This document shows, piece after piece, positions 8,493 to 61,761 of a stretch of DNA of 64,000 nt (positions are counted from its first letter, which is position 1; each line of letters starts with the position of its first letter). The DNA is from a virus. The stretch lies in the IMG/VR virus record IMGVR_UViG_3300046820_000903, positions 18,292-82,291 of that record. One strand, written 5' to 3'. The translations under genes were made by a program, and so were the position numbers. The notes below the pieces were generated by a model. It had not been told where the DNA came from. It searched no databases and worked only from the letters and a program-made list of their open reading frames with translations.

Positions 8493-8493
8493 A

Positions 8494-9045: not shown

Positions 9046-9054
9046 ACTAACTCC

Positions 9055-9894
9055 TTAAATTTCAATTAAAATGTCAGGGTTCCAACCTGACTCTTCGCCG
9101 TGCGATTCATAACCACGTGGGTTACAAACAACTCTAGTTTCACCAATCATATAATCAAATGTTTGGTGCATATGGCCATGTGTCCATAGTTTAATCTGCG
9201 GACGATCTAATATAAACTCACTTAGGTCGCTAGCATAGCCACCATTCATGAGTGTATCGTGTTTGTACTGCTTGCTAATGCTTTGATAGCTAGGCGCATG
9301 GTGACCAACAACCACGCACTTCCTGTCTTTGTTGGCATCAACAATTTGCTTAATATACTCAACTGTTTTACGATGCCGGTCCATGGCATGTGCAGGACGT
9401 AGTTTAGTATATCCATGCTCGTCATTACGAATAACACGGAAGTCATTCATCATGTCACCAATGGTATGTAAGGTCATTGGATCACCTTTGTTCATGTCAG
9501 TCCATAGTGTACCACCTACAAATAGTACACCTTCAATAAACTGCATGTCACGTTCCAAGAAGTATATGTTAGGAAATTTAGCACATTCTTCACGTAGGTG
9601 TTCTACACCTCTGTGGAATTCTCCGTGGTAGAATTCATGATTACCAGCAACATAAACCACATGCGGGAATTGAAAACTACAACGCTTTAAAAAGTCGCGA
9701 AATAACTGAGCACGAGCCTGTCCAAATTTTAGTGCGGCAATTTCTAAGTGGCTGTACTTTGCTTCGGGGTGGTCGTGTAAGTCGTTGATGATCATAATGT
9801 CACCAGACAAAATAAGGACATCATAGTCCTTGTCGTTTTTAATGTTAATGTCTACAAACTCAAGGTGTAAATCACTAACCAGTTTGATCTTCAT
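9055..9894 (-). CDS. Calcineurin-like metallophosphoesterase
   Basis: 279 residues with all the blocks of the family: SDLHLE (7-12), GDIM (about 31), GNHEFY (about 85), VVVGHHAPS (about 196) and THGHMHQ (about 240). These bind a dinuclear metal centre and hydrolyse phosphomono- or diesters. Targets in phages range from nucleotides to RNA 2',3'-cyclic phosphates; nothing here sets the substrate. It overlaps the preceding gene by 20 nt. Confidence 0.85.
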   Translation of the reverse strand: MKIKLVSDLHLEFVDINIKNDKDYDVLILSGDIMIINDLHDHPEAKYSHLEIAALKFGQARAQLFRDFLKRCSFQFPHVVYVAGNHEFYHGEFHRGVEHLREECAKFPNIYFLERDMQFIEGVLFVGGTLWTDMNKGDPMTLHTIGDMMNDFRVIRNDEHGYTKLRPAHAMDRHRKTVEYIKQIVDANKDRKCVVVGHHAPSYQSISKQYKHDTLMNGGYASDLSEFILDRPQIKLWTHGHMHQTFDYMIGETRVVCNPRGYESHGEESGWNPDILIEI

Positions 9895-10168
9895 TGCCAG
9901 CTTCCAGTTTTGCTATGGAGTTTAGTCCGTTTACTGGGATTCCATCTTCGTCAACGATTGCAAAACCATCAAAGACAAACCCAGCACCTTTACAAAAGTC
10001 TTCAAACGCTTGTAAAATTTCTTCTAGGTTGTCATGATTATGATCTAAGACAAGTTTCCTAGTACCATCATTGTAGCATAACACCCATTGTGTGTCAAGC
10101 TCATTCTTGTCTATTTTGCCTAACGAGTGCAATGCTTTAACAATGGTGTCCCAATCTTTATTGCTCAT
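9875..10168 (-). CDS. Hypothetical protein
   Basis: 97 acidic residues, family not recognised (MSNKDWDTIVKALHSLG ... FVFDGFAIVDEDGIPVNGL). It overlaps both neighbours, so is probably coupled to the dehydrogenase before it and the phosphoesterase after it. Confidence 0.6.
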   Translation of the reverse strand: MSNKDWDTIVKALHSLGKIDKNELDTQWVLCYNDGTRKLVLDHNHDNLEEILQAFEDFCKGAGFVFDGFAIVDEDGIPVNGLNSIAKLEAGNEDQTG

Positions 10169-47356: not shown

Positions 47357-47693
47357 AATGATTAACAAGTACGGGTTTCCCATTATTGCCGCAGGCGGCA
47401 TGGGATACTTGATTTACTACGTATGGGAATGGGCCACCAAAGAAGTCAAGCCAGTGTTGGGAGAAGCCAACACCACGCTGATTGCTCTGATTGACCGTAT
47501 TCGTATGCTAGACAACGACTTGATTCGACTGCAACAAAAGGTCAACACTACATTACACTTACGTGGCAAGATCATTGAAAGCGAACGTGTATTGGAAGCG
47601 CACAAAGTTGATACAGAAGCCGAAAAGAAGTTTAAGAGTGTGATAGACGGCGCCAAAGAAGACAAGAACACAGCGGCAAGCGGCGAAGGTTAA
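47343..47693 (+). CDS. Holin-like membrane protein 2
   Basis: 116 residues. KYGFPIIAAGGMGYLIYYVWEW (about 9-30) span, then a cytosolic helix LIDRIRMLDNDLIRLQQKVNTTL similar to the first holin-like protein, and a longer acidic tail (EKKFKSVIDGAKEDKN). A GGGAGAAG site precedes the ATG. Two related proteins may form a holin/antiholin pair. Confidence 0.65.
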   Translation: MDIAEMINKYGFPIIAAGGMGYLIYYVWEWATKEVKPVLGEANTTLIALIDRIRMLDNDLIRLQQKVNTTLHLRGKIIESERVLEAHKVDTEAEKKFKSVIDGAKEDKNTAASGEG

Positions 47694-47700
47694 GAGTCCT

Positions 47701-47706
47701 TAAATA
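47701..47706 (+). promoter_or_regulatory. Late-like promoter box TAAATA
   Basis: CCTTAAATATTGCTTTAA; the 15 bases from TAAATA on are identical to those at 55881. Leader with AAGGGGA before ATG 47725. Confidence 0.55.
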
Positions 47707-47724
47707 TTGCTTTAAGGGGAATAG

Positions 47725-49245
47725 ATGGACGCGGTTATTGTTTCGGATTGTTCAAACGGCGAAAACAATACATTCTTATATCGTTATATTGGGCCATATA
47801 AAATTGCCCACGTGTGTCGCAGCCAAGGATACTCAGCACAGGTTATAGACTTTGTAATGAGCATGACGTACGACACACTACTAGGATACCTACGTAAGTT
47901 TGTTGACAAAGAAACCAAAATGGTAGCACTCAGTGCTACCTTTCTTTGTCAAGTGCCTGCTAAACAAAGCGATGGCTCCTGGGCTCGTGCCCCAGAGCAT
48001 GTAATACGAGCCTTACGTCAAATTAAAATAGAGTTCCCACAAGCAAGATACGTGCTAGGCGGCTATATGAGTGAACACTTGGACGGCTTTGGATTCATTG
48101 ACTGCCGTGTACTCAGCAATGCCGAAGCCATTACAGCCGAATTAATCAATTACCTTGCCGGTGTGGGCGAAGAACCACAGTATAAACTACAAAAGCCAAG
48201 TTGGAAGCGGGCCGCTGGACTTGAAAAGATGTATTATGCTCCTCGCAATGCCGTATACAATATAGAAACAGACAACTTCAGCTTCCATGAACAGGATTGT
48301 ATAGTAGAACAAGAAACATTACCACTGGAAGTAAGTCGTGGCTGTGTGTTTAAGTGTAAATTCTGTAATCATGAGAACCTAGGACGTCCCAAATTAGATT
48401 ATCTTCGTAGCATGGACTGTATCCGTGAGGAACTGGTCAACAACTATGAACGTTGGGGTGTTACAAACTACAATATACTATGCGACACGTTTAACGATAC
48501 TGAAATTAAACTACGCAGGTGGCATGAAATGGTCACAAGCTTGCCATTTAAAATTAAATTTGCCGCTTACATACGTGTGGACTTGATACATCGTTTCCCG
48601 GACATGGCACACTTGTTGCAAGAAGGCGGCTTACATGCGGCATTCCACGGACTTGAAAGCCTACATCCAGACGCAAGTCGCATTGTAGGTAAAGCCTGGA
48701 GCGGTCGACATGCTCGCGAATACATTCCTGAGTTGTATCACAATACGTGGGGTGGCCAAGTACATCAGCATCTTAACTTTATTGTGGGATTACCTGGCGA
48801 CAGCATAGAGTCCATGGAAAGCACAGCTGATTGGATAATACAGAATCAGCTACAAAGTGCCAGCTTTGGGGAGTTGTATCTGGTCAAGGGTAGCTTTAGA
48901 CATCTAAGCGAGTTTGAACGCAATGCTGAACAATACGGATACACCTTTGATGACACCAAAATACAGGATGCTCGTGTAGAAAGCGGCGGCGGTAGTTATA
49001 ATAAGTATTGGAAGCTGGACTATATTGACTTTGAAAAAGCCCGGCTTGTGGCACGTTCGCTGAACAGACGCATAGGTTCCCATGTTGGTCCAATGAATTG
49101 GACTATACTAAGTGCGTTATCAGTGGGCATGCCAGAGTCAAAAATAAATGTTAAACGTATACAGTTTAGTCTGGGTACATACGCCACACATAAATTGGCA
49201 TTTATTCAACGATATTTGACCAAATTAAATGGCATAAGTGCCTAA
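47725..49245 (+). CDS. B12-binding-type radical SAM enzyme
   Basis: 506 residues. The N-terminal 170 residues (DAVIVSDCSNGENNTFLYRYIG ... VALSATFL ... YVLGGYMSE) fit a cobalamin-binding-like Rossmann domain, though no DxHxxG is seen. The radical SAM motif is CVFKCKFC (about 210-217), with FNDTEIKLRRW, YIRVDLI, HGLES and IVGLPGDSIESM as later blocks. It is related to MiaB/YgiQ-type enzymes. In the late operon it precedes the desaturase by 8 nt; substrate unknown. Confidence 0.78.
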   Translation: MDAVIVSDCSNGENNTFLYRYIGPYKIAHVCRSQGYSAQVIDFVMSMTYDTLLGYLRKFVDKETKMVALSATFLCQVPAKQSDGSWARAPEHVIRALRQIKIEFPQARYVLGGYMSEHLDGFGFIDCRVLSNAEAITAELINYLAGVGEEPQYKLQKPSWKRAAGLEKMYYAPRNAVYNIETDNFSFHEQDCIVEQETLPLEVSRGCVFKCKFCNHENLGRPKLDYLRSMDCIREELVNNYERWGVTNYNILCDTFNDTEIKLRRWHEMVTSLPFKIKFAAYIRVDLIHRFPDMAHLLQEGGLHAAFHGLESLHPDASRIVGKAWSGRHAREYIPELYHNTWGGQVHQHLNFIVGLPGDSIESMESTADWIIQNQLQSASFGELYLVKGSFRHLSEFERNAEQYGYTFDDTKIQDARVESGGGSYNKYWKLDYIDFEKARLVARSLNRRIGSHVGPMNWTILSALSVGMPESKINVKRIQFSLGTYATHKLAFIQRYLTKLNGISA

Positions 49246-49253
49246 GGAGATTT

Positions 49254-49991
49254 ATGAGTTACGTTATAGCAACTCTTGTATTAACACACATCACCATTGC
49301 ATGTGTAACATTGTATCTACACCGCAGTCAAGCACACAGAGGTGTTACGTTTCATCCTGCGGTAGCGCATTTAATGCGTTTCTGGCTGTGGATGACAACA
49401 GGACAAATTACCAAGCAATGGGTGGCAGTACACCGCAAGCATCACAGATTTACAGAAGTAGAAGGTGATCCACACAGTCCACACGTATTTGGCTTTTGGC
49501 GTGTGCTGTTTAAAGGTGCGTTTCTATATCACTCTGCTAGTAAAGACGCAGACATGGTAAAACAATATGGTGCAGGCACACCAGATGATTGGATGGAACA
49601 AAATATATACACCAAGCACAGCCGTATTGGTATCATGCTTATGTTACTGATAGACTTAGTGGTGTTTGGTCTGCCGGGTTTATTAATATGGGGTATTCAA
49701 ATGATATGGATTCCATTCTGGGCCGCAGGTGTTATTAACGGCTTAGGTCACTGGTGGGGATATAGAAATGGCGAAACTAAAGATCACAGCAGAAACATTG
49801 TTCCTTGGGATATTATTGTTGGTGGGGAATGCCTTCATAATAACCATCATTTGGATCCTGGTAATCCTCGACTAAGCCGTCGTTGGTTTGAATTTGATAT
49901 AGGCTGGCTTTACATAAAGTTGCTGTGTTCGTTTAGATTGGCAACACTTAAACCATCTGTAGCAAATCCTTCAGTAACTGAATCCAAGTAA
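49254..49991 (+). CDS. Fatty-acid desaturase (delta-9 acyl-CoA/lipid type)
   Basis: 245 residues. The three His boxes HRSQAHR (about 23-29), HRKHHRF (about 61-67) and HNNHH (about 198) bind the di-iron centre. Four hydrophobic segments span the membrane. It would introduce a double bond in membrane acyl chains, altering fluidity. Desaturases occur in some T4-like cyanophages. The end overlaps antisense the GGCT-like gene by 82 nt. AAGGAG site. Confidence 0.85.
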   Translation: MSYVIATLVLTHITIACVTLYLHRSQAHRGVTFHPAVAHLMRFWLWMTTGQITKQWVAVHRKHHRFTEVEGDPHSPHVFGFWRVLFKGAFLYHSASKDADMVKQYGAGTPDDWMEQNIYTKHSRIGIMLMLLIDLVVFGLPGLLIWGIQMIWIPFWAAGVINGLGHWWGYRNGETKDHSRNIVPWDIIVGGECLHNNHHLDPGNPRLSRRWFEFDIGWLYIKLLCSFRLATLKPSVANPSVTESK

Positions 49992-50320
49992 GTTTTACTT
50001 GGCATAGTGCCTTGCAAGTGGTTTCTATTGTCTGCGGTCATAGTGTAAACCCACGCTTGCTTTGTTTCGCCTTCGTGAAATACGTTGGTGTACACACGAT
50101 TATAAAATACAGGAAAGCCTTCGCGCTGATCTAAACCTGCAAGTATTTCATCATCAATGTCCCAAAGAATGCCCAGCGAGCATCCACCCTGCTGTTCGTA
50201 TACATTGGCATACAATAACATTTCCCAAGCATAGTTAGGCAATACTGCCGGTCCTAGTCGTACTGCATTTGGGCTCATTTGATTGTTGTTTGTATTCATG
50301 CCGTAAGCAAAATATAACAC
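49910..50320 (-). CDS. Gamma-glutamylcyclotransferase-like protein (AIG2/GGCT fold)
   Basis: 136 residues from GTG 50320, with AGGAG seven bases upstream. YFAYGMNT (3-10) corresponds to the YGSN substrate loop and LDQREGFP to the catalytic-Glu segment. Relatives release 5-oxoproline from gamma-glutamyl amines. Its 3' end runs antisense to the desaturase. Last gene of the cyclase operon. Confidence 0.75.
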   Translation of the reverse strand: MLYFAYGMNTNNNQMSPNAVRLGPAVLPNYAWEMLLYANVYEQQGGCSLGILWDIDDEILAGLDQREGFPVFYNRVYTNVFHEGETKQAWVYTMTADNRNHLQGTMPSKTYLDSVTEGFATDGLSVANLNEHSNFM

Positions 50321-50321
50321 A

Positions 50322-51035
50322 TTAAACTCCTAATAGGTGAAAGTTCTTTTCTATATGGTCCCATACACCAATCGGACTACGGGTATCAGACCAAATTAAC
50401 TGGGCACTAACTGTTAAACGCACACCCGGGCCCTGTACAACATGGTGTGGTAAATTTGTGCGTAGTATTGCACTAGGCGCATTACTAGATGTAGCAAAGT
50501 CATAGTCTGGGCATGTTTCCCAAGTCAATGCTCCGCTATTGAGTTCTTTAATCCAAGGCAGCAACCAGTGTACTGCAATTATCTTTCCAGGAATAGTTTT
50601 AACAAACTTGGTATAATTTTCAGTCTTGGGGAACCAACGAATTATGCCAGGTGCATCAGACAACTCATAATAGCTTAACCTGGCCTCTAGTACAACTTCA
50701 GTTTTGTCATCCTTTAACTTGGTGCCATCAACATGAATGTTCTTACCATTGTTGTTGGGTGCGCCAGTGAATACTGTTAAGTTTCTAACACAAATACCAA
50801 GTGGTTCTAGAAACTTATCAGTCTGCTCTACTGTCTTGGGGAAAAACTCTTTGCAATCTCCAATGGGACTGTATAGTTCCTGGTTGCCTACATCTTGTTT
50901 AAATTTTTCATTGAAGTATGCTAAAAAGTTGGCCTTTTCTTCTTCATCAAGCTTTAGTGAAAGTGGATAAAAATAAGAAGGATTGGCTGTAGGTGTACTG
51001 TAAGGATCTAGCCAAGTAAGATTTTTAAGGCCCAT
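50322..51035 (-). CDS. Putative Fe(II)/2-oxoglutarate-type dioxygenase
   Basis: 237 residues. The order NIHVDGTKL (HxD), a long beta region (VVLEARLSYYEL, GKIIAVHWLLPW) and LPHHVVQGPGVRLTVSAQLIW (distal His and R) fits the double-stranded beta-helix hydroxylase fold. Not clearly homologous to 10980-11729. It lies between ACP and the GGCT-like gene in an early operon, so a lipid- or thioester-linked substrate is possible. Confidence 0.5.
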   Translation of the reverse strand: MGLKNLTWLDPYSTPTANPSYFYPLSLKLDEEEKANFLAYFNEKFKQDVGNQELYSPIGDCKEFFPKTVEQTDKFLEPLGICVRNLTVFTGAPNNNGKNIHVDGTKLKDDKTEVVLEARLSYYELSDAPGIIRWFPKTENYTKFVKTIPGKIIAVHWLLPWIKELNSGALTWETCPDYDFATSSNAPSAILRTNLPHHVVQGPGVRLTVSAQLIWSDTRSPIGVWDHIEKNFHLLGV

Positions 51036-51040
51036 TGTTA

Positions 51041-51271
51041 TTAAACCTTTGTTTTGATAACGTCAATGGCTGATTGTACACTTGTAATGGCCTGTGCTTC
51101 CTCATCACTAATTTCAATGTTAAACTTATCTTCAAATGCCATTACCAATTCAACTGCATCCAAGCTGTCTAAGTCTAGATCAGCAAAGTTAGCACCAGCA
51201 TCTAGCGTATTTGTACCCAGTTGTTCTTTGATTAATTCGATTATTTGTTGTTCGATTGTCATAATTGTCAT
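51041..51271 (-). CDS. Acyl carrier protein
   Basis: 76 residues. LDLDSLDAVELVMAFEDKFNIEI contains the DSLD phosphopantetheine attachment Ser (about residue 36). The size and acidic four-helix pattern are typical. It carries acyl chains; candidates for its use are the desaturase across the operon boundary or the dioxygenase-like neighbour. In the cyclase transcript, so probably early. Confidence 0.9.
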   Translation of the reverse strand: MTIMTIEQQIIELIKEQLGTNTLDAGANFADLDLDSLDAVELVMAFEDKFNIEISDEEAQAITSVQSAIDVIKTKV

Positions 51272-51279
51272 GTCTTCCC

Positions 51280-53322
51280 TTATTTGCTTGTAGCTCTATA
51301 TGTACCATCCCAATTGGCTGGTAGTCCTTCGTTCATACGCTCTAACATATTTTCATAATAGTGTCGGAGTTCATTATCTTCTTTGATAAGCTTTTCGCAT
51401 GCCTTGATAGCACGAGCCCAATCACCGCGATAGTATGCAGTTAGATAGATATCGTGCTGTGTAGTGTTGGTTTCGCCAAGTGTAAAGATCTTAACACCTT
51501 GCGTCTTGCCTTTAACAGCAATACAATCTAACTCGACGACCGGGTACTCATCCTTGACCAGTTCTGCTGTACGTTGTCCTAAAACAATCTTGACACCATA
51601 CGGCTTAGACTGGCCCTCGAGTCGGCTCGCCAAATTAACACCGTCGCCAAGACAAGTATAGTCAAAGCGTTGATCACTACCCATATTGCCCACCACAACG
51701 GCGGCAGTATTAATTCCCAAACCCATACCAAAGGCAGGAATGCCTTCTGCTGTAACTTCTGCATTAAACGCATCTAAGCTTCCCATCATTTCAAGTGCAG
51801 TCTTGACAGCCATGTGTGCATGACGAGCTTCGTCAACTGGTGCATTCCAGAATGCCATTTGTGCATCGCCAATGTACTTGTCAAGTGTTCCGTTATTGTC
51901 AATGATCTTCTTTGTCATTGCTGTCATATAACGGTTCATAATCTTAGTAAGTCCCTGTACGTCCTTACCATAGTGTTCGGAGATCGTAGTAAATCCACGA
52001 ACGTCTGTGAACATGATACTGAGTTCACGTTCATCGCCACCCAGCTGTAATAGCTCGGGATTCTTTTGTAGCTTGGCAACTAACGCTGGACTCAGGTAAG
52101 TGCCAAACTGTTTCTTGATCTGTTGCTTTTGCTTGAACTCTTGTACGAATCGTGCAAACAATGCATGACCGTATAGCAGTACTGCGGCAAAAACAACATA
52201 GTAGATGTCCCATAGTTGACTGTAGTTTGCCCACAAGTATAAGCCACCTTGAACAACACCATATACTAGGCCACCTAGAACAAATAGTGCGGCCCAGATT
52301 GGCACACGTGGCATGGCAAAGATAACAATAGCCGCAATGCCGATGATGGTCAACAATTCAACCATACCAGCCCAAGCAGGACGAGTAGGTGTGTTACCAT
52401 CGATAAGTGTTTGTATAGCTTGTGCTTGTAAGTTATGTGCCCACTGTTCACCACGCGGTGTGCCAATGATACCACCAAGACCTTCTACACCTAAACCCAG
52501 TACAACAATTTTACCCTTAAGATTCAAGTCTTTGCGTGACAGTTCACTTAGTTCATAACGCTTGAATTCTTTGTTCCAACGCAACCATACACGACCGTTG
52601 GCATCAGTTTCCACAATAGGCTGTCCAGCAATGCGTACTTTTTCTACACCTGCTTCGCTCATCTTCATTTGATAGCTTTGCTCGCCTGTGTATACACGTA
52701 ATGCTTCAATTGGCAAGCTTGGATAGTATTCTTTGTTTACTGTAACAACCAAGGGCATACGACGAACAACACCGTCAATTTCAGGAGCCGCTACAGTTGT
52801 ACCAACACCCTTGGCACCTTGAGCTAGCTCTGGACGTGGACTTAGCGCACCTGGCCATGAGTACAACCAAGTGTAAGGATCGCCACCCATTACAGCTACG
52901 CCACGACGAACTGCATCAGGCTTTTTGTTTTGTGTAGTAGGAGTTTGTGCAATAACACTGGGAGTTTTATTTAGAACTTTAGCAAGCTCTGCATCACCGC
53001 CTAGTCTATCCTTTTCAGTCATAAGCACAGGCACAACAATGGTGGCCGCACCTAGTTCATGAATACGTTGAATAGCTTGTGCAATTTCTCGTCTGTCCCA
53101 AGGCCATTGCCCCAGGCGTTCCATTGACTTTTCACCAATATCGATTACAACCACTTCTTTGGATTGTTCTACAGCATCGCTGGCAAGTAGCATGTCAAAG
53201 CCTTTAAGCTGAATGCTTTCTACTGGTGCTGGATTTTGGATTTTTAATAGGATTAGTAGTGCGGCAGTGATTACTACCCATGCTACACTTAATGGTCCTG
53301 GTATAAGTTTTAGTATCTTCAT
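51280..53322 (-). CDS. CHASE2-domain class III adenylate cyclase (membrane)
   Basis: 680 residues from ATG 53322. An N-terminal span (LSVAWVVITAALLILLKIQ, about 11-29), then an extracytoplasmic CHASE2 domain (about 35-290; FDMLLASDA, VVVIDIGEKSMERLGQWPWDR, GKIVVLGLGVEGLG). Three spans follow (about 305-395), then the cyclase domain: IMFTDVRGFT (metal Asp), LDKYIGDAQMAF (adenine Lys and second Asp), FDYTCLGDGVNLASRLE (Thr/Asn/Arg). All catalytic residues are present, and K plus D-x-T indicate ATP rather than GTP. Early promoter; predicted leaderless mRNA. Confidence 0.92.
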   Translation of the reverse strand: MKILKLIPGPLSVAWVVITAALLILLKIQNPAPVESIQLKGFDMLLASDAVEQSKEVVVIDIGEKSMERLGQWPWDRREIAQAIQRIHELGAATIVVPVLMTEKDRLGGDAELAKVLNKTPSVIAQTPTTQNKKPDAVRRGVAVMGGDPYTWLYSWPGALSPRPELAQGAKGVGTTVAAPEIDGVVRRMPLVVTVNKEYYPSLPIEALRVYTGEQSYQMKMSEAGVEKVRIAGQPIVETDANGRVWLRWNKEFKRYELSELSRKDLNLKGKIVVLGLGVEGLGGIIGTPRGEQWAHNLQAQAIQTLIDGNTPTRPAWAGMVELLTIIGIAAIVIFAMPRVPIWAALFVLGGLVYGVVQGGLYLWANYSQLWDIYYVVFAAVLLYGHALFARFVQEFKQKQQIKKQFGTYLSPALVAKLQKNPELLQLGGDERELSIMFTDVRGFTTISEHYGKDVQGLTKIMNRYMTAMTKKIIDNNGTLDKYIGDAQMAFWNAPVDEARHAHMAVKTALEMMGSLDAFNAEVTAEGIPAFGMGLGINTAAVVVGNMGSDQRFDYTCLGDGVNLASRLEGQSKPYGVKIVLGQRTAELVKDEYPVVELDCIAVKGKTQGVKIFTLGETNTTQHDIYLTAYYRGDWARAIKACEKLIKEDNELRHYYENMLERMNEGLPANWDGTYRATSK

Positions 53323-53328
53323 TTTGTT

Positions 53329-53357
53329 AGTATAACAGAACAAGTGGACAAAGTCAA
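53329..53357 (-). promoter_or_regulatory. Sigma70-type early promoter for the adenylate cyclase operon
   Basis: On the minus strand: TTGACT (53357-53352), 17 bp, TATACT (53334-53329), then AACAAA and ATG 53322. +1 would fall on or next to the start codon. Confidence 0.78.
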
Positions 53358-53368: not shown

Positions 53369-55828
53369 TTAACTCATAATTGGCACAACTTCAATCTCTG
53401 TACCGTAAGCATAGCCGTTGTTTTGAACCCATTGAGTGGCCACACGGTTAGCATCACGTTGATTATTACCCACGCCCGAGAATCTATGCATCTCGTTGCC
53501 ATCATTGTCAATGATCTTCCAGGCTCCTGTAAATGTGCCAGGTACAGCTCGTTGCTGTGCTAGGTCTGTTGTGGATCCTGGCCTTATGTCTGGCTCAATA
53601 TCAGTAACGCCGGGAATAGGTCTTGGTGTTGATGTGGGTAATTGTCCTACACTACCTGCTGGTACAGGAGCACCTGCTGTGGCACGAATTGGTTGTATAG
53701 GTTCAGCAATCTGATCACCCCAACGTCTTACACCAAATTTATTTTTGGCCAAGTACGCAGGCATTCCATGCGGCCCTTGTTCAATATAATCCGTTAAATG
53801 TTCTAATGCACCAGCATCAGTTGTTATGTTTGTTGGGACTTCTGCCAATCTTTTGTTTCTATCCAGATCAAAGATTTCATAACGGTTTTGATCAAACCTA
53901 GGACGGAACGATAGGTTGTTGCGACTTGTTGGCGTAATGCCATTGTCAAATCGCCACTGTCGCCATTCGGTACCTGCCGCTTCTCTGTTTGATCCATTGG
54001 GATCTACACTCTTAAATTGTCCAACAGTCTTGCCAGTGTTTGCATCGTATACTTCCCAGTTGTTTGCGTTGTTGTCATACGGGCGAAGTGCTGTGGCTGT
54101 CATTCTATCAAACACTTCAGGATTTTCAATACCCCACTCTTTTATTGCTGTTGACTTGGCTTCGTCTTCTGTTGATGCTACAACTTCAATGCGTTGATTG
54201 TTGTACTTGACACTCCACCAATACCTGCCACCTTTTTCTCTTTTTACTTTACGTTGTAATTGTGCTTGACGTAAGAAACTGGCCAACGCACTCTTAGGCA
54301 ACTCGCCTGCGCTGTATCTAGCAAAATATTGTAGTGTGTTGGTAGAGTCATCACTGGGAGCAATCATCTTATAAAACTTTTTAACATACTCTTGCTTGTG
54401 TTTGTTTTCATCAAGTGCAATGTCCATGCCTACCACAAATCGTAATAGTGTGGTTTCAAGTTGATCTATGTTGGCATTTAACCAATCGCCACCTGGGCTA
54501 CGGAATTCAATGTAGCCATCTTTTGTATTGATACTGGTGTACTTAGATGTAGCACCTGCATGAATAATCTTACTGGCCGCGGTGTCTAAGTCTTGTTTCA
54601 TGCGGGCCATGACCTGCTGAACTTTGTCAGGTGTTGCCGCAGATTTAATCAAGCTGATAGCACTCTTGGCATACGTGTTGCCAATGCGATCAAACTGTTT
54701 TAGAATGTATTCATCACCAATGAACAATGCCAACTTAACAAAGTCCAACTTTTCACGACTAAAGTTAGGAACACTAACGTTCATGTGTAGGCCTGTTGAT
54801 TCGTTTGTGTAGCAACCTCTGCCCTTGGCCCAGTTAATGACTTTGCGTAAGTCACTGAGCATTTCGTCTACTGGTAGCGGTGGGCTAACAAACTCCAAGC
54901 CGCCTTCACTACTTGGATCATCTGGTTCTAAGCTACCATCTGGTTCAACAACATACTTGCCTGGTTCTCTCTTACCACCGTGGTAGTTGTCGCTGGCGTT
55001 CCATGGTCGACCAATTGCCTGTCCAAATTCTGCCGCAACATCGCTTGGGGAATCGCCGCCATTATTTTGTCCCATCATGTAAGGCCAAGATAACTCACCG
55101 CCTGCATCGTTGTAAATATCATGCATGGTATGCAGGCCTTGTGATTCAAGGAAGTCGCGCTCACCTGGATATTCCCAGCTATCTCGCCAGTTGTCTTCTG
55201 CACGTTGCCAATTTTCGTCTTGTGAAGCAATAGCATCTTTGACCATTTGACCTATCATTTCATCTACTGATTCGTCAGCATCAGCCCAGTGATGGTATGC
55301 TGGTGTTTCTTTAATACGAACACGTTCTTCTTTGTCGGTACTAAAACTATGTGCTCGATTGCCAGCTTCAACAGCCGCATCTATTTCTTCCCCACTAAGC
55401 CCCATATCCTCAAGAGCTTGTCTACGCATTTCATCTCTATCCGCTTCGCCTTCGATGTACGTTGTTACTTCTTCTTCTTCTACATCTGCCCAATCTTCGC
55501 TTTGCTTTTCCATAGCATAGTCATCATACTTGCTTTGCAAGTCATTGATGGCATCTTGTACACTACGACGACTATTTGAAAAGTCCCCGTTAGTGAAAAA
55601 GTTCATAATATCGTCGAAGTCAACTACACTTTCATCAGCATCAAAGTCTGGTTCCCATTCTTGGTCTTCATCGCTGGCAGCGCCTGGAACAATCATTTCG
55701 AATTCCATACCAGCAAGTGCGCCGGGAATTCCTGCAGCCATTTTACGTAGGTTGCTGGGGCTCATGTTGACTTCCATAAGGTCAACATCTTCTATTAAGG
55801 GTTTGTTAAAAACGTCACGAATTTTCAT
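53369..55828 (-). CDS. Giant probable virion protein with amidoligase-like domain
   Basis: 819 residues. The first 30 (MKIRDVFNKPLIEDVDLMEVNM) contain L-I-E|D and L-M-E|V sites like those of a prohead protease. An amidoligase-type (glutamine-synthetase fold) core is suggested by AGMEFEMIVPG (about 39-49), EPDGSLEPD, GLEFVSPPLPVDEML (about 312-326), STGLHMNVSVP and a second YIEFRSPGG. Amidoligases form amide bonds with ATP. The C-terminal 270 residues contain three similar beta-rich modules (WRQWRFDNG, YEIFDLDRNKRLAEV, WKIIDNDGNEMHRF). Leaderless late promoter. Confidence 0.65.
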   Translation of the reverse strand: MKIRDVFNKPLIEDVDLMEVNMSPSNLRKMAAGIPGALAGMEFEMIVPGAASDEDQEWEPDFDADESVVDFDDIMNFFTNGDFSNSRRSVQDAINDLQSKYDDYAMEKQSEDWADVEEEEVTTYIEGEADRDEMRRQALEDMGLSGEEIDAAVEAGNRAHSFSTDKEERVRIKETPAYHHWADADESVDEMIGQMVKDAIASQDENWQRAEDNWRDSWEYPGERDFLESQGLHTMHDIYNDAGGELSWPYMMGQNNGGDSPSDVAAEFGQAIGRPWNASDNYHGGKREPGKYVVEPDGSLEPDDPSSEGGLEFVSPPLPVDEMLSDLRKVINWAKGRGCYTNESTGLHMNVSVPNFSREKLDFVKLALFIGDEYILKQFDRIGNTYAKSAISLIKSAATPDKVQQVMARMKQDLDTAASKIIHAGATSKYTSINTKDGYIEFRSPGGDWLNANIDQLETTLLRFVVGMDIALDENKHKQEYVKKFYKMIAPSDDSTNTLQYFARYSAGELPKSALASFLRQAQLQRKVKREKGGRYWWSVKYNNQRIEVVASTEDEAKSTAIKEWGIENPEVFDRMTATALRPYDNNANNWEVYDANTGKTVGQFKSVDPNGSNREAAGTEWRQWRFDNGITPTSRNNLSFRPRFDQNRYEIFDLDRNKRLAEVPTNITTDAGALEHLTDYIEQGPHGMPAYLAKNKFGVRRWGDQIAEPIQPIRATAGAPVPAGSVGQLPTSTPRPIPGVTDIEPDIRPGSTTDLAQQRAVPGTFTGAWKIIDNDGNEMHRFSGVGNNQRDANRVATQWVQNNGYAYGTEIEVVPIMS

Positions 55829-55835
55829 AGTACTA

Positions 55836-55841
55836 TATTTA
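55836..55841 (-). promoter_or_regulatory. Late-like promoter box TAAATA
   Basis: Minus-strand ACTAAATA, then seven bases, then ATG 55828; no ribosome site. Confidence 0.5.
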
Positions 55842-55880
55842 GTTTGACCTTTACGGTATGCTGTGCTAAACTTGTCCTAT

Positions 55881-55886
55881 TAAATA
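55881..55886 (+). promoter_or_regulatory. Late-like promoter box TAAATA of speD
   Basis: TATTAAATATTGCTTTAA; 15 bases from TAAATA match the site at 47701 exactly. Leader with TTGGAG before ATG 55905. Confidence 0.55.
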
Positions 55887-55904
55887 TTGCTTTAATTTGG
55901 AGAT

Positions 55905-56258
55905 ATGATGCATTGGGGATACCATTTGATGTTGGATTGTAGCGGTTGCAAACGCATTGACAGCCGTGAGAACATTTATAACTTTACCAAAGATATGGTC
56001 AAGCGCATTGACATGACAGCACACGGCGAACCTGTTATTGAGTACTTGTTGGAAGGTGATCCTAAGCAAGGCTATAGCATGATGCAGTTGATTACAACCA
56101 GCAACATCTGCGGCCACTTTATGGAACTTGACGGTACTGCTTATTTTGACGTATTCAGTTGTAAGAAGTTTGATATTGAAACGGCCAAGTCAGTTGTTCA
56201 AGAATACTTTGATCCTGCCAAGATCAGAGTCAACTACATTACTCGTCACGCAGATTGA
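55905..56258 (+). CDS. speD: S-adenosylmethionine decarboxylase proenzyme (prokaryotic type)
   Basis: 117 residues, usual for the class 1 enzyme. GYHLMLDCSGC (5-15), TTSNICGHFMELDGTAYFDVFSCKKFD (about 65-91) with a Ser where the proenzyme self-cleaves and the usual H and FSCK. It makes decarboxylated SAM for spermidine. SpeD is a known auxiliary gene of T4-like cyanophages. Its stop directly abuts the stop of the convergent curlin-discoidin gene. Confidence 0.85.
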   Translation: MMHWGYHLMLDCSGCKRIDSRENIYNFTKDMVKRIDMTAHGEPVIEYLLEGDPKQGYSMMQLITTSNICGHFMELDGTAYFDVFSCKKFDIETAKSVVQEYFDPAKIRVNYITRHAD

Positions 56259-58157
56259 TTACTGTCCTTGGTTTACAGTAATCTTAGTACATCCACCTGC
56301 GGTGGCACAGTTACTTGTAATTGAGTAAAACTGCTGTGTGCTTCCGCGTTGTGTCAAGCTTAGATCCTGCGCTAAACCTGATAATGTAACTCTAGCCATG
56401 TGCCCAGCACTACCTTGTTGAGTAATGTCAACGTTCTTGCTACCGCCGCTTAGGTTAACTTCAGCATAGTGACTTCCGCTATCCTTTTGTTGGATGTTAA
56501 GGGAGTTGTTATTGTTTTGTATGTTAACAAACACTCCTTTGCCACCACCAGTGCTTTGTTGAGTAATGTTAACTGTATTGCTATTGCCAGTGACATTTAA
56601 CTCAGCGTAGTTAACTTGCGTTTGGTTATTACCAGACTGTGCAATAGTAATATCATTGAATGAGCCATTGCCGTTATATTCAGCATAGTTTTGTCGAGTG
56701 CCAAATTGTGTTACAGTTATTTCATTCATGTTACCAATCTGTTCAATGTAAACTTTGCTGTCATTTGTGGTACGTCCTGTGAATGACTGTACCTTGGCTG
56801 TATTTGTAGAATCAGCATTAAAGGCTGAAGCACTACCTCCACAGCATAATGTATTTGCTGCCGCAGTAGTTGGATCAACAACGGTATTGCTAGTTGCAGT
56901 ACTTGTGGTAGTATTATTGGCATCATAGAAATAGGTAATCTCGGCAATTTGTACGCTGTTGCCAGCATTGTTTTTAATAGAAGGAAATATCATAAAATAA
57001 TAAACATAAGCAGTAGAGTTAGTTACTGGTATGTCATTACTAACACTAAATCTATTATTAGACAACGACAAAGACCCTTGCTGAATTAATGTCCATGTTG
57101 ATCCATCATTTGAGCCGTAAAGTTTATAACTTGTTGGGTCTCGTTCTACAGCATCATTAGCCGTAGTTAATTTAAAACTAGTAACAACTCGACCAGCATT
57201 TAATTGAATAGTGACCCCGGCATTTTGTTTGTCAAAGTTTAAGTATTTGGTATAGGGATTATTATCAAACGCATTGTAAGGACCTTCATTACTGGGACTG
57301 TTATTGCTAGTAGGTATCGCTCGAGTAATATACACACCAGAGCTATTATTGTAAATTGCTGTGGGGGCTGGTGGCGGAGGGCCCGGTGGAGTTTGTGGTG
57401 TTCCTGTTCCTGGCCCGGCATTGGTCACACTCATTGTGCTATTATAGCCGCCTGCTGTGCCTGATGTTGTACCACCTGTGGTACTGGGACCACCGCCGTT
57501 TTCGTTGGCAACAAGTCCTGCTGTGCTTTGTCCAGGAGTACCCGAACTGTTGACAATACAGGGATTACTTCCACCCCATGCACCTTGGCAAGCACCCATA
57601 CCTGGGTTTGTTGTCCATCCTTGAGCATTGTATCCGTAAGCAGGGCCAAACTCTGGGTTATACAATAAGTTGCCGCCACCGTTGAGTTGTAAGGTAGGAG
57701 CACGATACCAAGGACCGTAATCACCTGCCCAGTAACTTCCGTCGATGCCATACATTGCAACTGTGGCATAGGCTACGTTGGCACAACTACCACCGCAGTT
57801 GGTTGAACTGACTGTTAGTGTTGTCCAAGGTACGCTAGGATCAGCCCAAGGGTTTCCAGGTGCGCCATTTGGGTTTGGTAGATTTCTATTGTAGCTTGAA
57901 TTTACTGAAGATAATAATGTGCCGCCCGCCGCATAGAATTGTATTCTTACGTTGGCAGTATCTGCTTCGTTTGGTCTACCACCACCATTGTGTGCTAGGG
58001 CACTAAATGTAAATGTTCCGCCTTGTTGCATGGCACTATTGAACACTACGTTTTGACTGATAGTTGTTGTCACATAAGCAGTGGCAATAGAGTTATAGTT
58101 TGTCTGTGCAAACGCAGTTGAACACAATAAAACTAAAGATAATAAAAACTTTTTCAT
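56259..58157 (-). CDS. Curlin-repeat protein with discoidin domain
   Basis: 632 residues. A Sec signal peptide (MKKFLLSLVLLCSTAFAQ), an N-terminal beta domain (about 19-165), a Gly/Pro/Ser linker, a discoidin (F5/8 type C-like) domain (about 270-412; SNEGPYNAFDNNPYTKYLNF, YKLYGSNDGSTWTLI) and curlin-type repeats (about 466-632; KVYIEQIGNMNEITVTQ, ITQQSTG, LNIQQKDSG, VDITQQGS). The last repeats match the other curlin gene. It is probably a CsgG substrate that displays a sugar-binding domain on an amyloid fibre. Last gene of the operon. Confidence 0.8.
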   Translation of the reverse strand: MKKFLLSLVLLCSTAFAQTNYNSIATAYVTTTISQNVVFNSAMQQGGTFTFSALAHNGGGRPNEADTANVRIQFYAAGGTLLSSVNSSYNRNLPNPNGAPGNPWADPSVPWTTLTVSSTNCGGSCANVAYATVAMYGIDGSYWAGDYGPWYRAPTLQLNGGGNLLYNPEFGPAYGYNAQGWTTNPGMGACQGAWGGSNPCIVNSSGTPGQSTAGLVANENGGGPSTTGGTTSGTAGGYNSTMSVTNAGPGTGTPQTPPGPPPPAPTAIYNNSSGVYITRAIPTSNNSPSNEGPYNAFDNNPYTKYLNFDKQNAGVTIQLNAGRVVTSFKLTTANDAVERDPTSYKLYGSNDGSTWTLIQQGSLSLSNNRFSVSNDIPVTNSTAYVYYFMIFPSIKNNAGNSVQIAEITYFYDANNTTTSTATSNTVVDPTTAAANTLCCGGSASAFNADSTNTAKVQSFTGRTTNDSKVYIEQIGNMNEITVTQFGTRQNYAEYNGNGSFNDITIAQSGNNQTQVNYAELNVTGNSNTVNITQQSTGGGKGVFVNIQNNNNSLNIQQKDSGSHYAEVNLSGGSKNVDITQQGSAGHMARVTLSGLAQDLSLTQRGSTQQFYSITSNCATAGGCTKITVNQGQ

Positions 58158-59260
58158 CGACGTAGTACACCATTGTTTTGTTTAATGTAGATAGTATTGC
58201 CACCTCCGCCGCCGGGGCCAATTAGTTCACTGGCACTAGCATCATTATGAACAATTGTAACAAATGTATTGCTACTGTAGCCCTGTGTTTTAACTTCAGA
58301 ATAGTGATCTTCGTTGCTTCTAAAAGCAATACCTTTACCCCTACTTTGAATATCAGCTCCGTCAGGTATTGTCCATGCTACACAAACACTTGTGCTGGCG
58401 TTACAGCCATTTTTGCCCGCTGAAATTGCCAGTGCCAATATACGTGCTTTTTCAATTTCATCTGCTGACTCTTTGACTCGTTGCGCTAAACGTCTGGCGG
58501 CTTCTGCTTCAATTTCAGCATCCATTTCTTCTTTCTTGGTACGACCAGTGTTGTCGCGAATCGCACGTTCAACTTCGTATGGCCTAACAAGAATTAAGTT
58601 GTTGTTGATTTTGCTTTCTAGTGTGTTAATAATAGTTGGCATTGTAGGTCTGCTATCAAAGCTGGTAACGTATGTTGCTTCAAATGCCTTATCTAATACA
58701 ACTGTGCCAGCGGCATTAGATACAGAAATCTGTCCCACCTTACAACGGTTTTCTTCTAGTTCGTACTTCTTTTGTTCGCTTTCGTCTTTGCAACTTGGTA
58801 GTAATACAACTAGGCTTTGCCCTGTTTCGTCGACAGTCATTGAAAAGTCGGTGCCACGAACAGAAATGTTTGCTGTGGGTGTATTAACAGCAACTTGTTG
58901 TGGACTGTTTTTGGCAATTTGGCCTGATGCATAACGTACAGTACCCATTGTTACTTTCATTGCCAATTTACCAGCATCGCTCTTCTTTGGATCAAATACA
59001 AAGTCGTCGATTACTAACTTTGAGTTTTCAGTGATTTTAACTTTAGTATCGTCTCGGAATGTGATGTTGCTTGAACAAGCCTGAGTCAGATAGGTATCCA
59101 TGCTTTCGATACTAGCACCCTTTATGCCTGAGGTTTTTGTTTTGCCACGTTGAACTTCACATTGTGTTCCTTTGTTATCGGACACAACACCAATACTACC
59201 GCTGGCAAAGGCGGTAGTATTTTGTACTAACAAAAGGGCTAATAGTAGCCTCCAATACAT
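58154..59260 (-). CDS. Exported FecR-domain protein with a curlin-like C-terminal strand
   Basis: 368 residues. Signal peptide MYWRLLLALLLVQNTTAFAS. A FecR domain lies at about 65-170 (ITFRDDTKVKITENSKLVIDDF; AMKVTMGTVRYASGQI; VAVNTPTANISVRGTDF). Four Cys suggest disulphides. A charged helix (RTKKEEMDAEIEAEAARRLAQRVKESADEIEKARILAL, about 245-280) is followed by a Gly5 linker and NTIYIKQNNGVLRR, like one curlin strand. It might bind or seed the fibre. In bacteria FecR domains often sense or anchor, here probably without a sigma partner. 4-nt overlap with the next gene. Confidence 0.75.
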   Translation of the reverse strand: MYWRLLLALLLVQNTTAFASGSIGVVSDNKGTQCEVQRGKTKTSGIKGASIESMDTYLTQACSSNITFRDDTKVKITENSKLVIDDFVFDPKKSDAGKLAMKVTMGTVRYASGQIAKNSPQQVAVNTPTANISVRGTDFSMTVDETGQSLVVLLPSCKDESEQKKYELEENRCKVGQISVSNAAGTVVLDKAFEATYVTSFDSRPTMPTIINTLESKINNNLILVRPYEVERAIRDNTGRTKKEEMDAEIEAEAARRLAQRVKESADEIEKARILALAISAGKNGCNASTSVCVAWTIPDGADIQSRGKGIAFRSNEDHYSEVKTQGYSSNTFVTIVHNDASASELIGPGGGGGNTIYIKQNNGVLRR

Positions 59261-59263: not shown

Positions 59264-60079
59264 TTATCTCGCAATGGCTGTGCCAGGATTAACAATTGAG
59301 CTACTACTTGTTCTAACAGTGATTGTATTGTTGCTACCTGTTGCGCGGATATCCACTGTGGTATCGTTAGTACCTTGTTGCTGAGTAGTGATACTGTTGA
59401 AACTACCAGCAATCACTTGCTTCAAGAAGTGACCGTTGGCACCAGCCGCATCCGTTTGTTGAATGTTTAATACGTTGCTGTTGCCAGTAATTTCAATGTC
59501 ACTTGTACCATTTGAACTCTTTAGTTCTTTGGTAATCTGGTTTTGATTGCCTGTGATTGCTGTTGTACTTGTAATGTCGCTACCTACTAACTGTTGAATA
59601 ACCAAGTTATTATCACCTGTGATAGTTTCAGTAACTGTGTTACGAAGGTTTAACGCATTGTTTGCATTGCCAATTGTTAAACTTGTATAGTTGTTGTGAC
59701 CAGTAACAGTACTTGTATAAACGTTGTTGCTACCTTGAATGTTATACTGTGCTGTGTTGGCATTACCAGTTTGTGTTAGTGTTAATGTGTTTGAACCGCC
59801 AGTAATTGTGCCATAGTTTGTAGAACTTGGGGCCGCTGGAGTAACAGTAGTGATACCGCTAGCAGAAACTGCTGTCACGGCTGTTAGTGCTGTACCACCT
59901 ACATTGTTAGTTCCGCCAACTTGTTCAATGGTAACAGTATTACTATTACCAACTTGTTCGATATAGACTTTATTGGGTCCGGTAGCAGATTGTGCCGTAG
60001 CGAACGCACTAACACTTGTAAGTGCTAATGCTACTAAAGTCATTGACAATGCTTTTGTCTTCTTCATCATTTTCAACAT
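59264..60079 (-). CDS. Curlin-type amyloid subunit (CsgA/CsgB-like)
   Basis: 271 residues. Signal peptide (ALSMTLVALALTSVSAFATAQ), then repeats with alternating N-x-x-x-I/V-x-Q and G-x-x-N (NKVYIEQVGNSNTVTIEQVG, NTLTLTQTGNANTAQ, NNLVIQQLVG, NVLNIQQTDAAGANGHFLKQ). This is the curlin repeat rule, with irregular spacers. It would be exported by CsgG and assembled outside the cell. Start at 60079; ATGs at 60070 and 60067 are also possible. Confidence 0.82.
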   Translation of the reverse strand: MLKMMKKTKALSMTLVALALTSVSAFATAQSATGPNKVYIEQVGNSNTVTIEQVGGTNNVGGTALTAVTAVSASGITTVTPAAPSSTNYGTITGGSNTLTLTQTGNANTAQYNIQGSNNVYTSTVTGHNNYTSLTIGNANNALNLRNTVTETITGDNNLVIQQLVGSDITSTTAITGNQNQITKELKSSNGTSDIEITGNSNVLNIQQTDAAGANGHFLKQVIAGSFNSITTQQQGTNDTTVDIRATGSNNTITVRTSSSSIVNPGTAIAR

Positions 60080-60299: not shown

Positions 60300-61274
60300 T
60301 CACTTAACATCTTTTCCGTCGCTGGACAAGTCCAGCGCGGCGGCGCTGAAGTCTTGGGCGTTAGCCGGGGTTTGTGTCTGAACCAACTCATCTTTCTTCT
60401 CCGCTTTTTCAATTTGCGCTGGCACTGGCAGTGCCTTTGCAACAGGCTTGTCCTCTACGAAAGCCCAGTGCCCTTTACGGGCACCTTCATGAATTGTGTT
60501 TACCACTGCGGCTTGAACAGCAATGTCAATAGCTTTGTTGATACTTTCGTTGATACTGCCGCCAATTTCGCCTTCAAGTGCAGTTGCGTTTGCTCCTAAG
60601 GCTGTACCATCACCCACGAATCGTAGCAGAGTAACTTTATCCATATAACTTAAAACTGTTTTAGTTACTGTTGTTGTTGTTAAGATTTCTCCTGTGTTAA
60701 CACTGACTGTTCGTAGTGTAACTGTAACCGTATCGCTTTGATATTGTGTGCTGGCACCAATGCCAAATATACGCACACCAGATCCACCTGTTAGTGTGTT
60801 ACTGTCATAGCCAACAATGCCGCCTTCAACAATGATACCAGCAAACATCATTGGAGGTAAAGGTTTAGCATCTTTGCCTTGATATTGTTCGCGAGCTTGA
60901 CGAATCATTTGACGCTCTTTAATCAGGTTGTCTAAGCCTACACGTTCTAGTACTGTAAACCAACGTGCATCACCGGCTTCTTGTAAACTCTTGATTAGAT
61001 AGTTTTCACCACCTTGTGTTACTGCTGAACTTAAACTAGCAATGTTTGGCATTGACTTACGTTGTCCAGTCTTATCTGTAAAACCATAGACTGCAACAGG
61101 GATAGGGCCGCCTACTGGTGGTGCTAGTTTGTTTTGTTCTTTCTTTAAGAACTTGCTAGATTCTATAACGGGTTCGTCAAACTGTTTGCCAGTGATTTTC
61201 TCACGTAGTGCTGAACTTGAAGCACAACCTGTTAATAGTGCTACTACGGCCAAGGATAATAATGTCTTTTTCAT
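60300..61274 (-). CDS. csgG: CsgG-type outer-membrane curli secretion lipoprotein
   Basis: 324 residues. Lipobox LTGC with Cys at residue 17. VAVYGFTDKTGQRK (about 60-73), WFTVLERVGLDNLIKERQMIRQ (about 105-126), LPPMMFAGIIVEGGIVGYD and a YQSDTVTVTLRTVSVNTGEIL strand pair match CsgG, which forms a nonameric curlin export pore. The C-terminal 50 residues are an acidic extension beyond the usual end. Located between csgF and the substrate genes as in curli operons. CsgE and CsgC homologues are not seen. Confidence 0.93.
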   Translation of the reverse strand: MKKTLLSLAVVALLTGCASSSALREKITGKQFDEPVIESSKFLKKEQNKLAPPVGGPIPVAVYGFTDKTGQRKSMPNIASLSSAVTQGGENYLIKSLQEAGDARWFTVLERVGLDNLIKERQMIRQAREQYQGKDAKPLPPMMFAGIIVEGGIVGYDSNTLTGGSGVRIFGIGASTQYQSDTVTVTLRTVSVNTGEILTTTTVTKTVLSYMDKVTLLRFVGDGTALGANATALEGEIGGSINESINKAIDIAVQAAVVNTIHEGARKGHWAFVEDKPVAKALPVPAQIEKAEKKDELVQTQTPANAQDFSAAALDLSSDGKDVK

Positions 61275-61284: not shown

Positions 61285-61761
61285 TTAAATCTTAAATGCC
61301 GCGTATGGCATAACTAATTCTGTATAGTTGTTGGGGTTAATCATGTCACTGATTCTAACAACAATATTGTTTCCAACAATTTTCCATGTAATGTTTTGTC
61401 CACCAATGTCAATATCGCCACATGGGCCACCAACACTTAACGGTGTACATGCTGGAGCACCAGTGCTTGAGCCAAATAAGCTGTCACTGATACGTTTTGC
61501 TAGTTCACTGTAGATACGTGTTTCTAGATTAGCTTGGAATCTAGCTTGCGGAGTGTTTGCCGCATCACGCTCAGCCGCTGCCTTGATAGCATCTGCGGCT
61601 TGTCTATTCTTGTCTTTTTGCTGATCTTCTAACTGTTTAATAGTCAAGACGTGACTACTGTAGCCAATACCACTAAAGGCTGGACTACTAAAACTATGTT
61701 GAAGTTCTGCGGCATTTAATGCACCGCAAACCATCATTAATACTAACGTTATCTTTTTCAT
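61285..61761 (-). CDS. csgF: CsgF-type curli assembly factor
   Basis: 158 residues. Signal peptide MKKITLVLMMVCGALNA, then LQHSFSSPAFSGIGYSS, the N-terminal segment that in CsgF inserts in the CsgG pore. The C-terminal DIDIGGQNITWKIVGNNIVVRISD fits the CsgF fold. Its stop is 10 nt before csgG. First gene of the curli transcript, with a late-type promoter and 5' stem-loop. Confidence 0.88.
   Translation of the reverse strand: MKKITLVLMMVCGALNAAELQHSFSSPAFSGIGYSSHVLTIKQLEDQQKDKNRQAADAIKAAAERDAANTPQARFQANLETRIYSELAKRISDSLFGSSTGAPACTPLSVGGPCGDIDIGGQNITWKIVGNNIVVRISDMINPNNYTELVMPYAAFKI

What the first reader, a model, noticed from the sequence alone, without database searches (positions are those of the whole stretch)
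51280..53357. Early-expressed CHASE2 membrane adenylate cyclase on a phage
A 680-residue class III cyclase with an extracytoplasmic CHASE2 sensor, four membrane spans and all catalytic residues has its own consensus promoter. It would make cAMP soon after infection. Class III cyclases are common in bacteria, but I know of few or none described in T4-like phages. It could reprogramme host catabolite control, respond to an external signal, or interfere with cyclic-nucleotide-based defence.
Basis: partly seen in the sequence, partly recalled or inferred. Interest (0 to 1): 0.88.

Follow-up and report, generated by a model that had tools for sequence, protein, structure and literature searches.

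The report
Cyclase ending a phage curli cassette
A virus of bacteria carries an intact cAMP-making membrane enzyme, but it is not a lone early gene: it is the last part of a gene set for an outer-membrane curli channel that is already known from ocean phages, and it travels with that set almost without exception.

Summary
Window 51280-53322(-) encodes an intact 680-aa protein with a CHASE2 sensor, four membrane helices and a class III cyclase domain. All six catalytic/specificity residues fit an adenylate cyclase of the K/T (class IIIb-like) type and are kept in 81 of 83 viral sequences.

The cyclase closes a type VIII secretion (curli) cassette: CsgF, CsgG, curlin-repeat protein, FecR, second curlin-repeat protein, amidoligase, cyclase. 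Linkage holds both ways: 47 of 47 cyclase loci with enough flank carry CsgF/CsgG/FecR, and 44 of 44 CsgG loci carry the cyclase. Curli-FecR-cyclase modules were described in pelagiphages in 2022 (PMC9599517), and cyclases are annotated in HTVC008M and Melnitz, so 'few or none' is wrong.

Added here: the module reaches large T4-superfamily phages; the window's clade has a conserved sigma70-type promoter on the cyclase (13/13 against 2/62); viral FecR ends in a curlin-like strand. Best reading: a trans-envelope sensor (CsgG/FecR to CHASE2) making cAMP for a host receptor. Activity and coupling are untested.

The parts
51280..53322 (-). CHASE2 adenylate cyclase, 680 aa, class IIIb-like (K482/T556)
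   Evidence: Pfam CHASE2 and Guanylate_cyc; catalytic residues; model; PDB fold match to CyaB/CyaC/Cya2
53329..53357 (-). Promoter of the cyclase: TTGACT, 17-nt spacer, TATACT; -10 ends 6 nt before the ATG
   Evidence: Conserved in 13/13 loci of the clade against 2/62 others
53369..55828 (-). Amidoligase_2 protein (819 aa) lying between the curli genes and the cyclase; seen only in the window's clade
   Evidence: Pfam PF12224 9.9e-8; present in 7 of the viral cyclase loci, all of this clade
56259..58157 (-). Second curlin-repeat protein (632 aa) with signal peptide and an F5/8 type C (sugar-binding) domain
   Evidence: Pfam PF00754 1.1e-9, Curlin_rpt 4.2e-5
58154..59260 (-). FecR-domain protein (368 aa), signal peptide, ends in a curlin-like strand IYIKQ
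   Evidence: Pfam FecR 2e-9; model and match to PupR signalling domain 6ovk; tail motif
59264..60079 (-). First curlin-repeat protein (271 aa)
   Evidence: Curlin_rpt 0.0015, just under Pfam's cut-off; repeats VYIEQVG, VTIEQVG, LTLTQTG
60300..61274 (-). CsgG outer-membrane curli channel, with lipobox
   Evidence: Pfam CsgG 4.9e-47; sequence
61285..61761 (-). CsgF
   Evidence: Pfam CsgF 3.5e-7
51041..51271 (-). Acyl carrier protein directly downstream of the cyclase; found in only a few of the nearest relatives, so not a core part
   Evidence: Pfam PP-binding 2.1e-13; distribution

Best explanation
The gene encodes a working membrane adenylate cyclase that is the cytoplasmic output of a phage-borne curli (type VIII secretion) module. 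SHOWN by sequence: the cyclase is intact, under purifying selection, keeps its catalytic set, belongs to one viral clade, and is tied to CsgF, CsgG, curlin-repeat proteins and FecR in fixed order. [quoted passage not shown] the exported FecR protein, whose body resembles the periplasmic signalling domain of FecR/PupR and whose tail resembles a curlin strand, reads or plugs that pore or its curlin cargo; this state is passed to the periplasmic CHASE2 domain, which sets the rate of cAMP synthesis; the cAMP acts through a host receptor of the CRP type, since none was found in the phage records. In the window's clade other genes have come to lie between the curli genes and the cyclase, and the cyclase has a promoter of its own, probably read by the host's unmodified RNA polymerase. 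The likely benefit is that the infected cell adjusts surface polymer or uptake functions to the state of the phage-made pore or fibre.
For: Linkage both ways: 47/47 cyclase loci with at least 6 kb upstream have FecR, curlin, CsgG and CsgF, 52/52 in the same order and strand; 43/44 CsgG loci with at least 8.5 kb downstream have the cyclase, and the remaining contig has it further on. Catalytic set in 81/83; dN/dS 0.05-0.13. Viral cyclases form one clade, SH-aLRT 100, beside alphaproteobacterial ones. FecR lies within 5 kb of 15/60 bacterial CHASE2 cyclases, CsgG near 0/60, so FecR-CHASE2 pairing also occurs outside phages. FecR model: best PDB match is the PupR cell-surface signalling domain, E 7e-5. 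Curlin-like end of FecR: 48/62 viral, 24/998 other ORFs, 0/16 bacterial FecR. No cNMP-binding protein in 16 records, while the control finds it in 11 of 14 genomes. No CsgE over cut-off in 19 records. [quoted passage not shown] a cyclase lacking CHASE2 makes cAMP constitutively (PMC5498481).
Against: No activity, expression or binding data. Nothing shows physical contact between FecR and CHASE2. FecR proteins next to bacterial cyclases are varied, and most of the 60 bacterial loci lack one nearby. The host of this phage is unknown, so a host cAMP receptor is assumed. The FecR fold match is modest (TM-score 0.31 by query, 0.52 by target). The FecR tail motif is short, and Pfam's curlin model does not score it. 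Melnitz cyclase has lost the catalytic Asn, and a few distant copies look interrupted, so activity may not be needed everywhere.
Confidence: 0.5

Rival explanations
1. The cyclase works upstream of the curli genes: cAMP, through a host regulator, switches on transcription of the phage curli module, as CRP-cAMP does for csgD in E. coli. This is the reading offered in PMC9599517.
For: Same module and partners. The cyclase has its own sigma70-type promoter in this clade, so it could be made before the curli genes.
Against: PMC9599517 reports no CsgD in the pelagiphages, and no protein with a cNMP-binding domain was found in 16 records. It does not explain the FecR partner or the CHASE2 sensor.
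Confidence: 0.2
2. One reading: a stand-alone early gene that floods the cell with cAMP to reset host catabolite control.
For: Own conserved promoter; catalytic set intact.
Against: Never found apart from the curli-FecR cassette in loci that can be tested. In other clades it lacks such a promoter (2/62) and follows the curli or FecR genes directly.
Confidence: 0.13
3. The module serves only as a pore or adhesin, and the cyclase is a passenger kept by linkage.
For: Melnitz cyclase has an Asn-to-Ser change at a catalytic position; a few distant loci have split or interrupted copies.
Against: Strong purifying selection on both domains, catalytic set in 81/83, and a promoter kept for the cyclase alone in the window's clade.
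Confidence: 0.1
4. The cyclic nucleotide interferes with cyclic-nucleotide-based defence such as Pycsar or CBASS.
For: Only the general idea that phages counter such systems.
Against: No linked anti-defence gene was found among the annotated neighbours; a membrane sensor tied to a curli pore is not needed for this; residues fit cAMP synthesis.
Confidence: 0.03

Closest known systems
Pelagiphage T8SS (curli)-FecR-adenylate cyclase module (PMC9599517; HTVC008M, Melnitz)
   Same: CsgF, CsgG, curlin-repeat proteins, FecR and CHASE2 cyclase in the same order; no CsgE; viral cyclases one clade of alphaproteobacterial affinity
   Different: Cyclase only about 40% identical; amidoligase and AdoMet decarboxylase genes lie between; a curlin protein carries an F5/8C domain; the cyclase has its own promoter; no histidine kinase in the 19 records searched; the DNA polymerase is nearest to jumbo phages such as Phosso and Atu_ph07
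CHASE2 cyclases CyaD1/CyaD2/CyaK of Sinorhizobium meliloti (PMC13001267, PMC5498481)
   Same: CHASE2 sensor with class III cyclase; the signal enters through an outer-membrane beta-barrel protein there, and an outer-membrane channel (CsgG) is the constant partner here
   Different: NsrA is not CsgG; the receptor Clr is the cell's own; no curli genes are reported with it in the passages read; no phage
FecR-CHASE2 histidine kinase operon of Burkholderia (BiofilmReg, PMC5192318)
   Same: An exported FecR-domain protein next to a CHASE2 membrane sensor with one plus three membrane spans, linked to biofilm
   Different: Output is a histidine kinase with a response regulator; FecR there has a LysM domain; no curli genes are part of the described operon
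Class III cyclase domains CyaB (3r5g), CyaC (1wc1), Cya2 (2w01)
   Same: Same catalytic fold (target TM-score about 0.73-0.75) and aligned active-site motifs
   Different: Those structures cover the cyclase part only, without CHASE2; Cya2 is a guanylyl cyclase with Glu where this protein has Lys

Membership tests
Class III adenylate cyclase, K/T (IIIb-like) type | Two metal-binding Asp, substrate Lys with Thr/Ser partner, catalytic Asn and Arg | tested here: met
   D440, D486, K482, T556, N563, R567; 81/83 viral sequences identical at all six; alignment to CyaB and CyaC
Class III adenylate cyclase, K/T (IIIb-like) type | Makes cAMP from ATP; possible bicarbonate response | not testable with these tools
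   Needs an enzyme assay
CHASE2 receptor cyclase | N-terminal membrane helix, extracytoplasmic CHASE2, three membrane helices, cytoplasmic cyclase | tested here: met
   Pfam, hydropathy, model
Phage curli (T8SS)-FecR-cyclase module | CsgF, CsgG, curlin repeat proteins, FecR and cyclase on one strand in this order | tested here: met
   Window genes; 52/52 related loci with all parts in that order
Phage curli (T8SS)-FecR-cyclase module | Cyclase in the same viral clade as HTVC008M and Melnitz | tested here: met
   All 30 viral rows on one side of a branch, SH-aLRT 100
Phage curli (T8SS)-FecR-cyclase module | CsgE absent | tested here: met
   No match over cut-off in 19 records; E. coli control rings; the window's own record is a fragment
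Phage curli (T8SS)-FecR-cyclase module | Histidine kinase before CsgF (stated for the podovirus modules) | tested here: not met
   No HATPase_c in 19 records including HTVC008M and Melnitz; so this is the myovirus-like form of the module, not the podovirus form
Bacterial curli (csg) operon | CsgD regulator, CsgE and CsgC with canonical CsgA/CsgB | tested here: inconclusive
   CsgE absent; CsgD and CsgC not searched; curlin-repeat proteins present
T4-superfamily phage | T4-type DNA polymerase and Gp23 capsid protein | tested here: inconclusive
   Polymerase met in the window; Gp23 not in the 82-kb fragment but in 8 of 17 records, among them a 285-kb relative with an 84% identical cyclase

The most novel reading that the evidence does not exclude
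These phages carry a complete trans-envelope signal path of their own: a curli pore gated or sensed by a FecR protein with a curlin-like tail (standing in for the missing CsgE gate), reporting to a CHASE2 cyclase that turns the state of the pore or fibre into host cAMP. It would be a phage counterpart of FecA-FecR or NsrA-CyaD signalling with a cyclase as output.
Probability: 0.3. Interest if true: 0.8.

Novelty: new member of a known kind. Interest (0 to 1): 0.5.

Why it matters
Why phages carry curli pores is an open question in the papers read (pore for uptake, sibling capture, lysis timing, exclusion of rivals). Showing that the cyclase and FecR are constant partners of the pore, well beyond pelagiphages, makes a signalling role testable with a few cloned genes and a cAMP read-out, and gives CHASE2, whose signals are mostly unknown, a defined candidate partner.

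Tried and rejected
A scan of genome contigs with the viral alignment found no bacterial relative; a degenerate active-site pattern and class-wide profile searches did. A phage-coded cAMP receptor was sought and not found in 16 records. The apparent exception, contig L417 without a cyclase, was rejected: its cyclase lies further along. A T4 late promoter motif TATAAATA does not occur in the window (0 found, 3.65 expected), so timing could not be read from it. Pfam's curlin model does not detect the FecR tail; the claim rests on the motif count and on the invariant Q361 in 39 FecR proteins. Whether L398, L386 and L360 are true disruptions or assembly errors was not settled. A small ORF resembling the cyclase's C-terminal end lies near CsgF in a few contigs but not in the window. 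Papers: only the open library was searched, so 'described' means described there.

Full report
WHAT IS THERE. The window is part of an 82,291-base IMG/VR virus record. The reported gene is real: 51280-53322 on the minus strand, 680 aa, with CHASE2 (9.9e-42) and a class III cyclase domain (2.4e-19). Hydropathy and an AlphaFold model from 34 viral sequences give one membrane helix before CHASE2 and three after it, then the cyclase. The cyclase part matches the solved domains of CyaB, CyaC and Cya2 (target TM-score about 0.73-0.75). Active-site residues are D440, D486, K482, T556, N563 and R567; the aligned CyaB and CyaC sequences carry the same metal Asp, Lys and Asn/Arg motifs, and the guanylyl cyclase Cya2 has Glu in place of the Lys. 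That the six residues have these roles, and that a Lys/Thr pair marks the class IIIb-like, cAMP-making type, is established knowledge of the family (from memory, not tested here); a Thr has been called predictive of bicarbonate regulation (PMC3383692).

IS IT SELECTED. In 83 aligned viral genes no stop occurs and 81 keep all six residues. The two exceptions are the isolates HTVC008M (Ser for Thr, as in many bacteria) and Melnitz (Asp for Thr and Ser for the catalytic Asn). dN/dS is 0.05-0.13 for the whole gene among close pairs, and low in both CHASE2 and cyclase. Among more distant loci found through CsgG, one copy is split over two frames, one is interrupted by about 900 bases and one lacks its beginning.

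THE SURROUNDINGS. On the same strand, upstream of the cyclase, lie CsgF (3.5e-7), CsgG (4.9e-47), a curlin-repeat protein, a FecR-domain protein (2e-9), a second curlin-repeat protein with an F5/8 type C domain, and an amidoligase. This is a type VIII secretion (curli) cassette. An AdoMet decarboxylase gene lies on the other strand within it. Of 80 viral cyclase loci, all 47 with at least 6 kb upstream hold FecR, curlin, CsgG and CsgF, and all 52 loci in which the parts are seen have them in the order CsgF, CsgG, FecR, cyclase on one strand. The reverse search with CsgG gave 44 loci with at least 8.5 kb downstream; 43 hold the cyclase in that stretch and the last contig holds it further on. 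Because each search keeps the best 80 matches, this describes relatives down to roughly 50% identity for the cyclase and 65% for CsgG, not every virus.

WHO CARRIES IT. The window's DNA polymerase is of the T4 superfamily and nearest, at 48%, to the jumbo phages Phosso and Atu_ph07. A 285-kb relative with an 84% identical cyclase has a Gp23 capsid gene, as do 7 other records. So the window is probably a piece of a large T4-superfamily phage; the host is unknown.

ORIGIN. Profile searches of 289 alphaproteobacterial and 274 gammaproteobacterial genomes put the closest bacterial cyclases in Alphaproteobacteria (up to 619 bits against 421). In a tree of 90 proteins all 30 viral rows form one side of a branch (SH-aLRT 100, stem length 0.97), beside alphaproteobacterial rows. 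The best bacterial identity to the window protein in that sample is 38%. The transfer is therefore old, and the gene has long been a viral one. The same conclusion, for pelagiphages, is in PMC9599517.

PROMOTER. TTGACT-17-TATACT stands 6 nt before the ATG. In 13 of 13 loci of the window's clade a comparable promoter with a 17-nt spacer stands before the cyclase although the surrounding sequence differs; among 62 other loci only 2 have one. In that clade other genes often lie between the curli genes and the cyclase, while elsewhere the cyclase mostly follows them directly. Inference: the cyclase was separated from the operon and kept expressed by a promoter of its own. A sigma70-type promoter suggests expression by unmodified host polymerase, hence early, but timing is not shown.

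FECR. The window's FecR protein starts with a signal peptide (by eye). Its model has a beta-sandwich body, a long helix and a C-terminal set of short strands (mean pLDDT 78). Its best solved match is the cell-surface signalling domain of the anti-sigma regulator PupR (6ovk, E 7e-5), and a weaker one is a cell-surface anchoring domain (5ix9, E 0.05). The protein ends in NTIYIKQNNGVLRR, much like the curlin repeat NKVYIEQVGNSN next door; 48 of 62 viral FecR proteins end in such a strand, against 24 of 998 other ORFs and 0 of 16 FecR proteins near bacterial cyclases, and its Gln (Q361) is invariant in 39 aligned proteins. Pfam's curlin model does not reach this tail. FecR lies within 5 kb of 15 of 60 bacterial CHASE2 cyclases, CsgG near none. 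A FecR-CHASE2 kinase operon is known in Burkholderia (PMC5192318).

HOW IT MAY WORK. Shown: the parts, their linkage, selection, and the absence of a detectable phage cAMP receptor and of CsgE. Inferred: FecR couples the CsgG pore or its curlin cargo to the CHASE2 domain, and cAMP goes to a host receptor. The nearest tested parallel is S. meliloti, where CHASE2 cyclases respond through the outer-membrane barrel NsrA and act through Clr (PMC13001267), and where removing CHASE2 makes the cyclase constitutive (PMC5498481).

COMPARED WITH WHAT IS KNOWN. Curli genes in pelagimyophages were reported in 2020 (PMC7029224), discussed for Melnitz in 2022 without the cyclase (PMC9004378), and the full curli-FecR-cyclase module was described in 2022 (PMC9599517). 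The window is a member of that kind in another phage group. New here, as far as the searched library shows: the near-absolute linkage over many non-pelagiphage contigs, the clade-specific promoter, the curlin-like end of FecR, and the extra genes in the cassette.

VERDICT. Observation confirmed; interpretation partly supported; new member of a known kind. Interest 0.5: ordinary as 'a phage with a cyclase', of real interest as a testable phage-borne signal path.

Noticed in passing
window 47640-47725 and 55830-55905: The radical SAM gene (47725+) and the AdoMet decarboxylase gene (55905+) have nearly the same leader, TTAAATATTGCTTTAA just before the start; a shared hairpin or promoter is possible.
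   Followed up: no
window 1-64000: The T4 late promoter core TATAAATA does not occur at all, where 3.65 would be expected from shuffles.
   Followed up: no
L398:13892-15903, L386:14793-17620, L360:15962-17719: Cyclase copies that look split over two frames, interrupted by about 900 bases near residue 592, and lacking the N-terminal part.
   Followed up: partly
L417:9111-9437; G610:C1:52421-52747: Small ORFs of 109-130 aa that resemble residues about 573-680 of the cyclase, just before CsgF in L417 and about 5 kb before the cyclase in G610; similar ORFs in L374, L376 and L377.
   Followed up: partly
L082 (Melnitz) 8004-10055: The Melnitz cyclase has Ser in place of the catalytic Asn and Asp in place of the adenine-binding Thr, so it may be altered or inactive.
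   Followed up: no
window 53369-56258: An amidoligase and, on the other strand, an AdoMet decarboxylase sit between the curli genes and the cyclase; the amidoligase only in the window's clade.
   Followed up: partly
window 47725-51271: Beside the cassette: radical SAM, fatty acid desaturase, gamma-glutamyl cyclotransferase-like and acyl carrier protein genes, a possible lipid or metabolite set.
   Followed up: no
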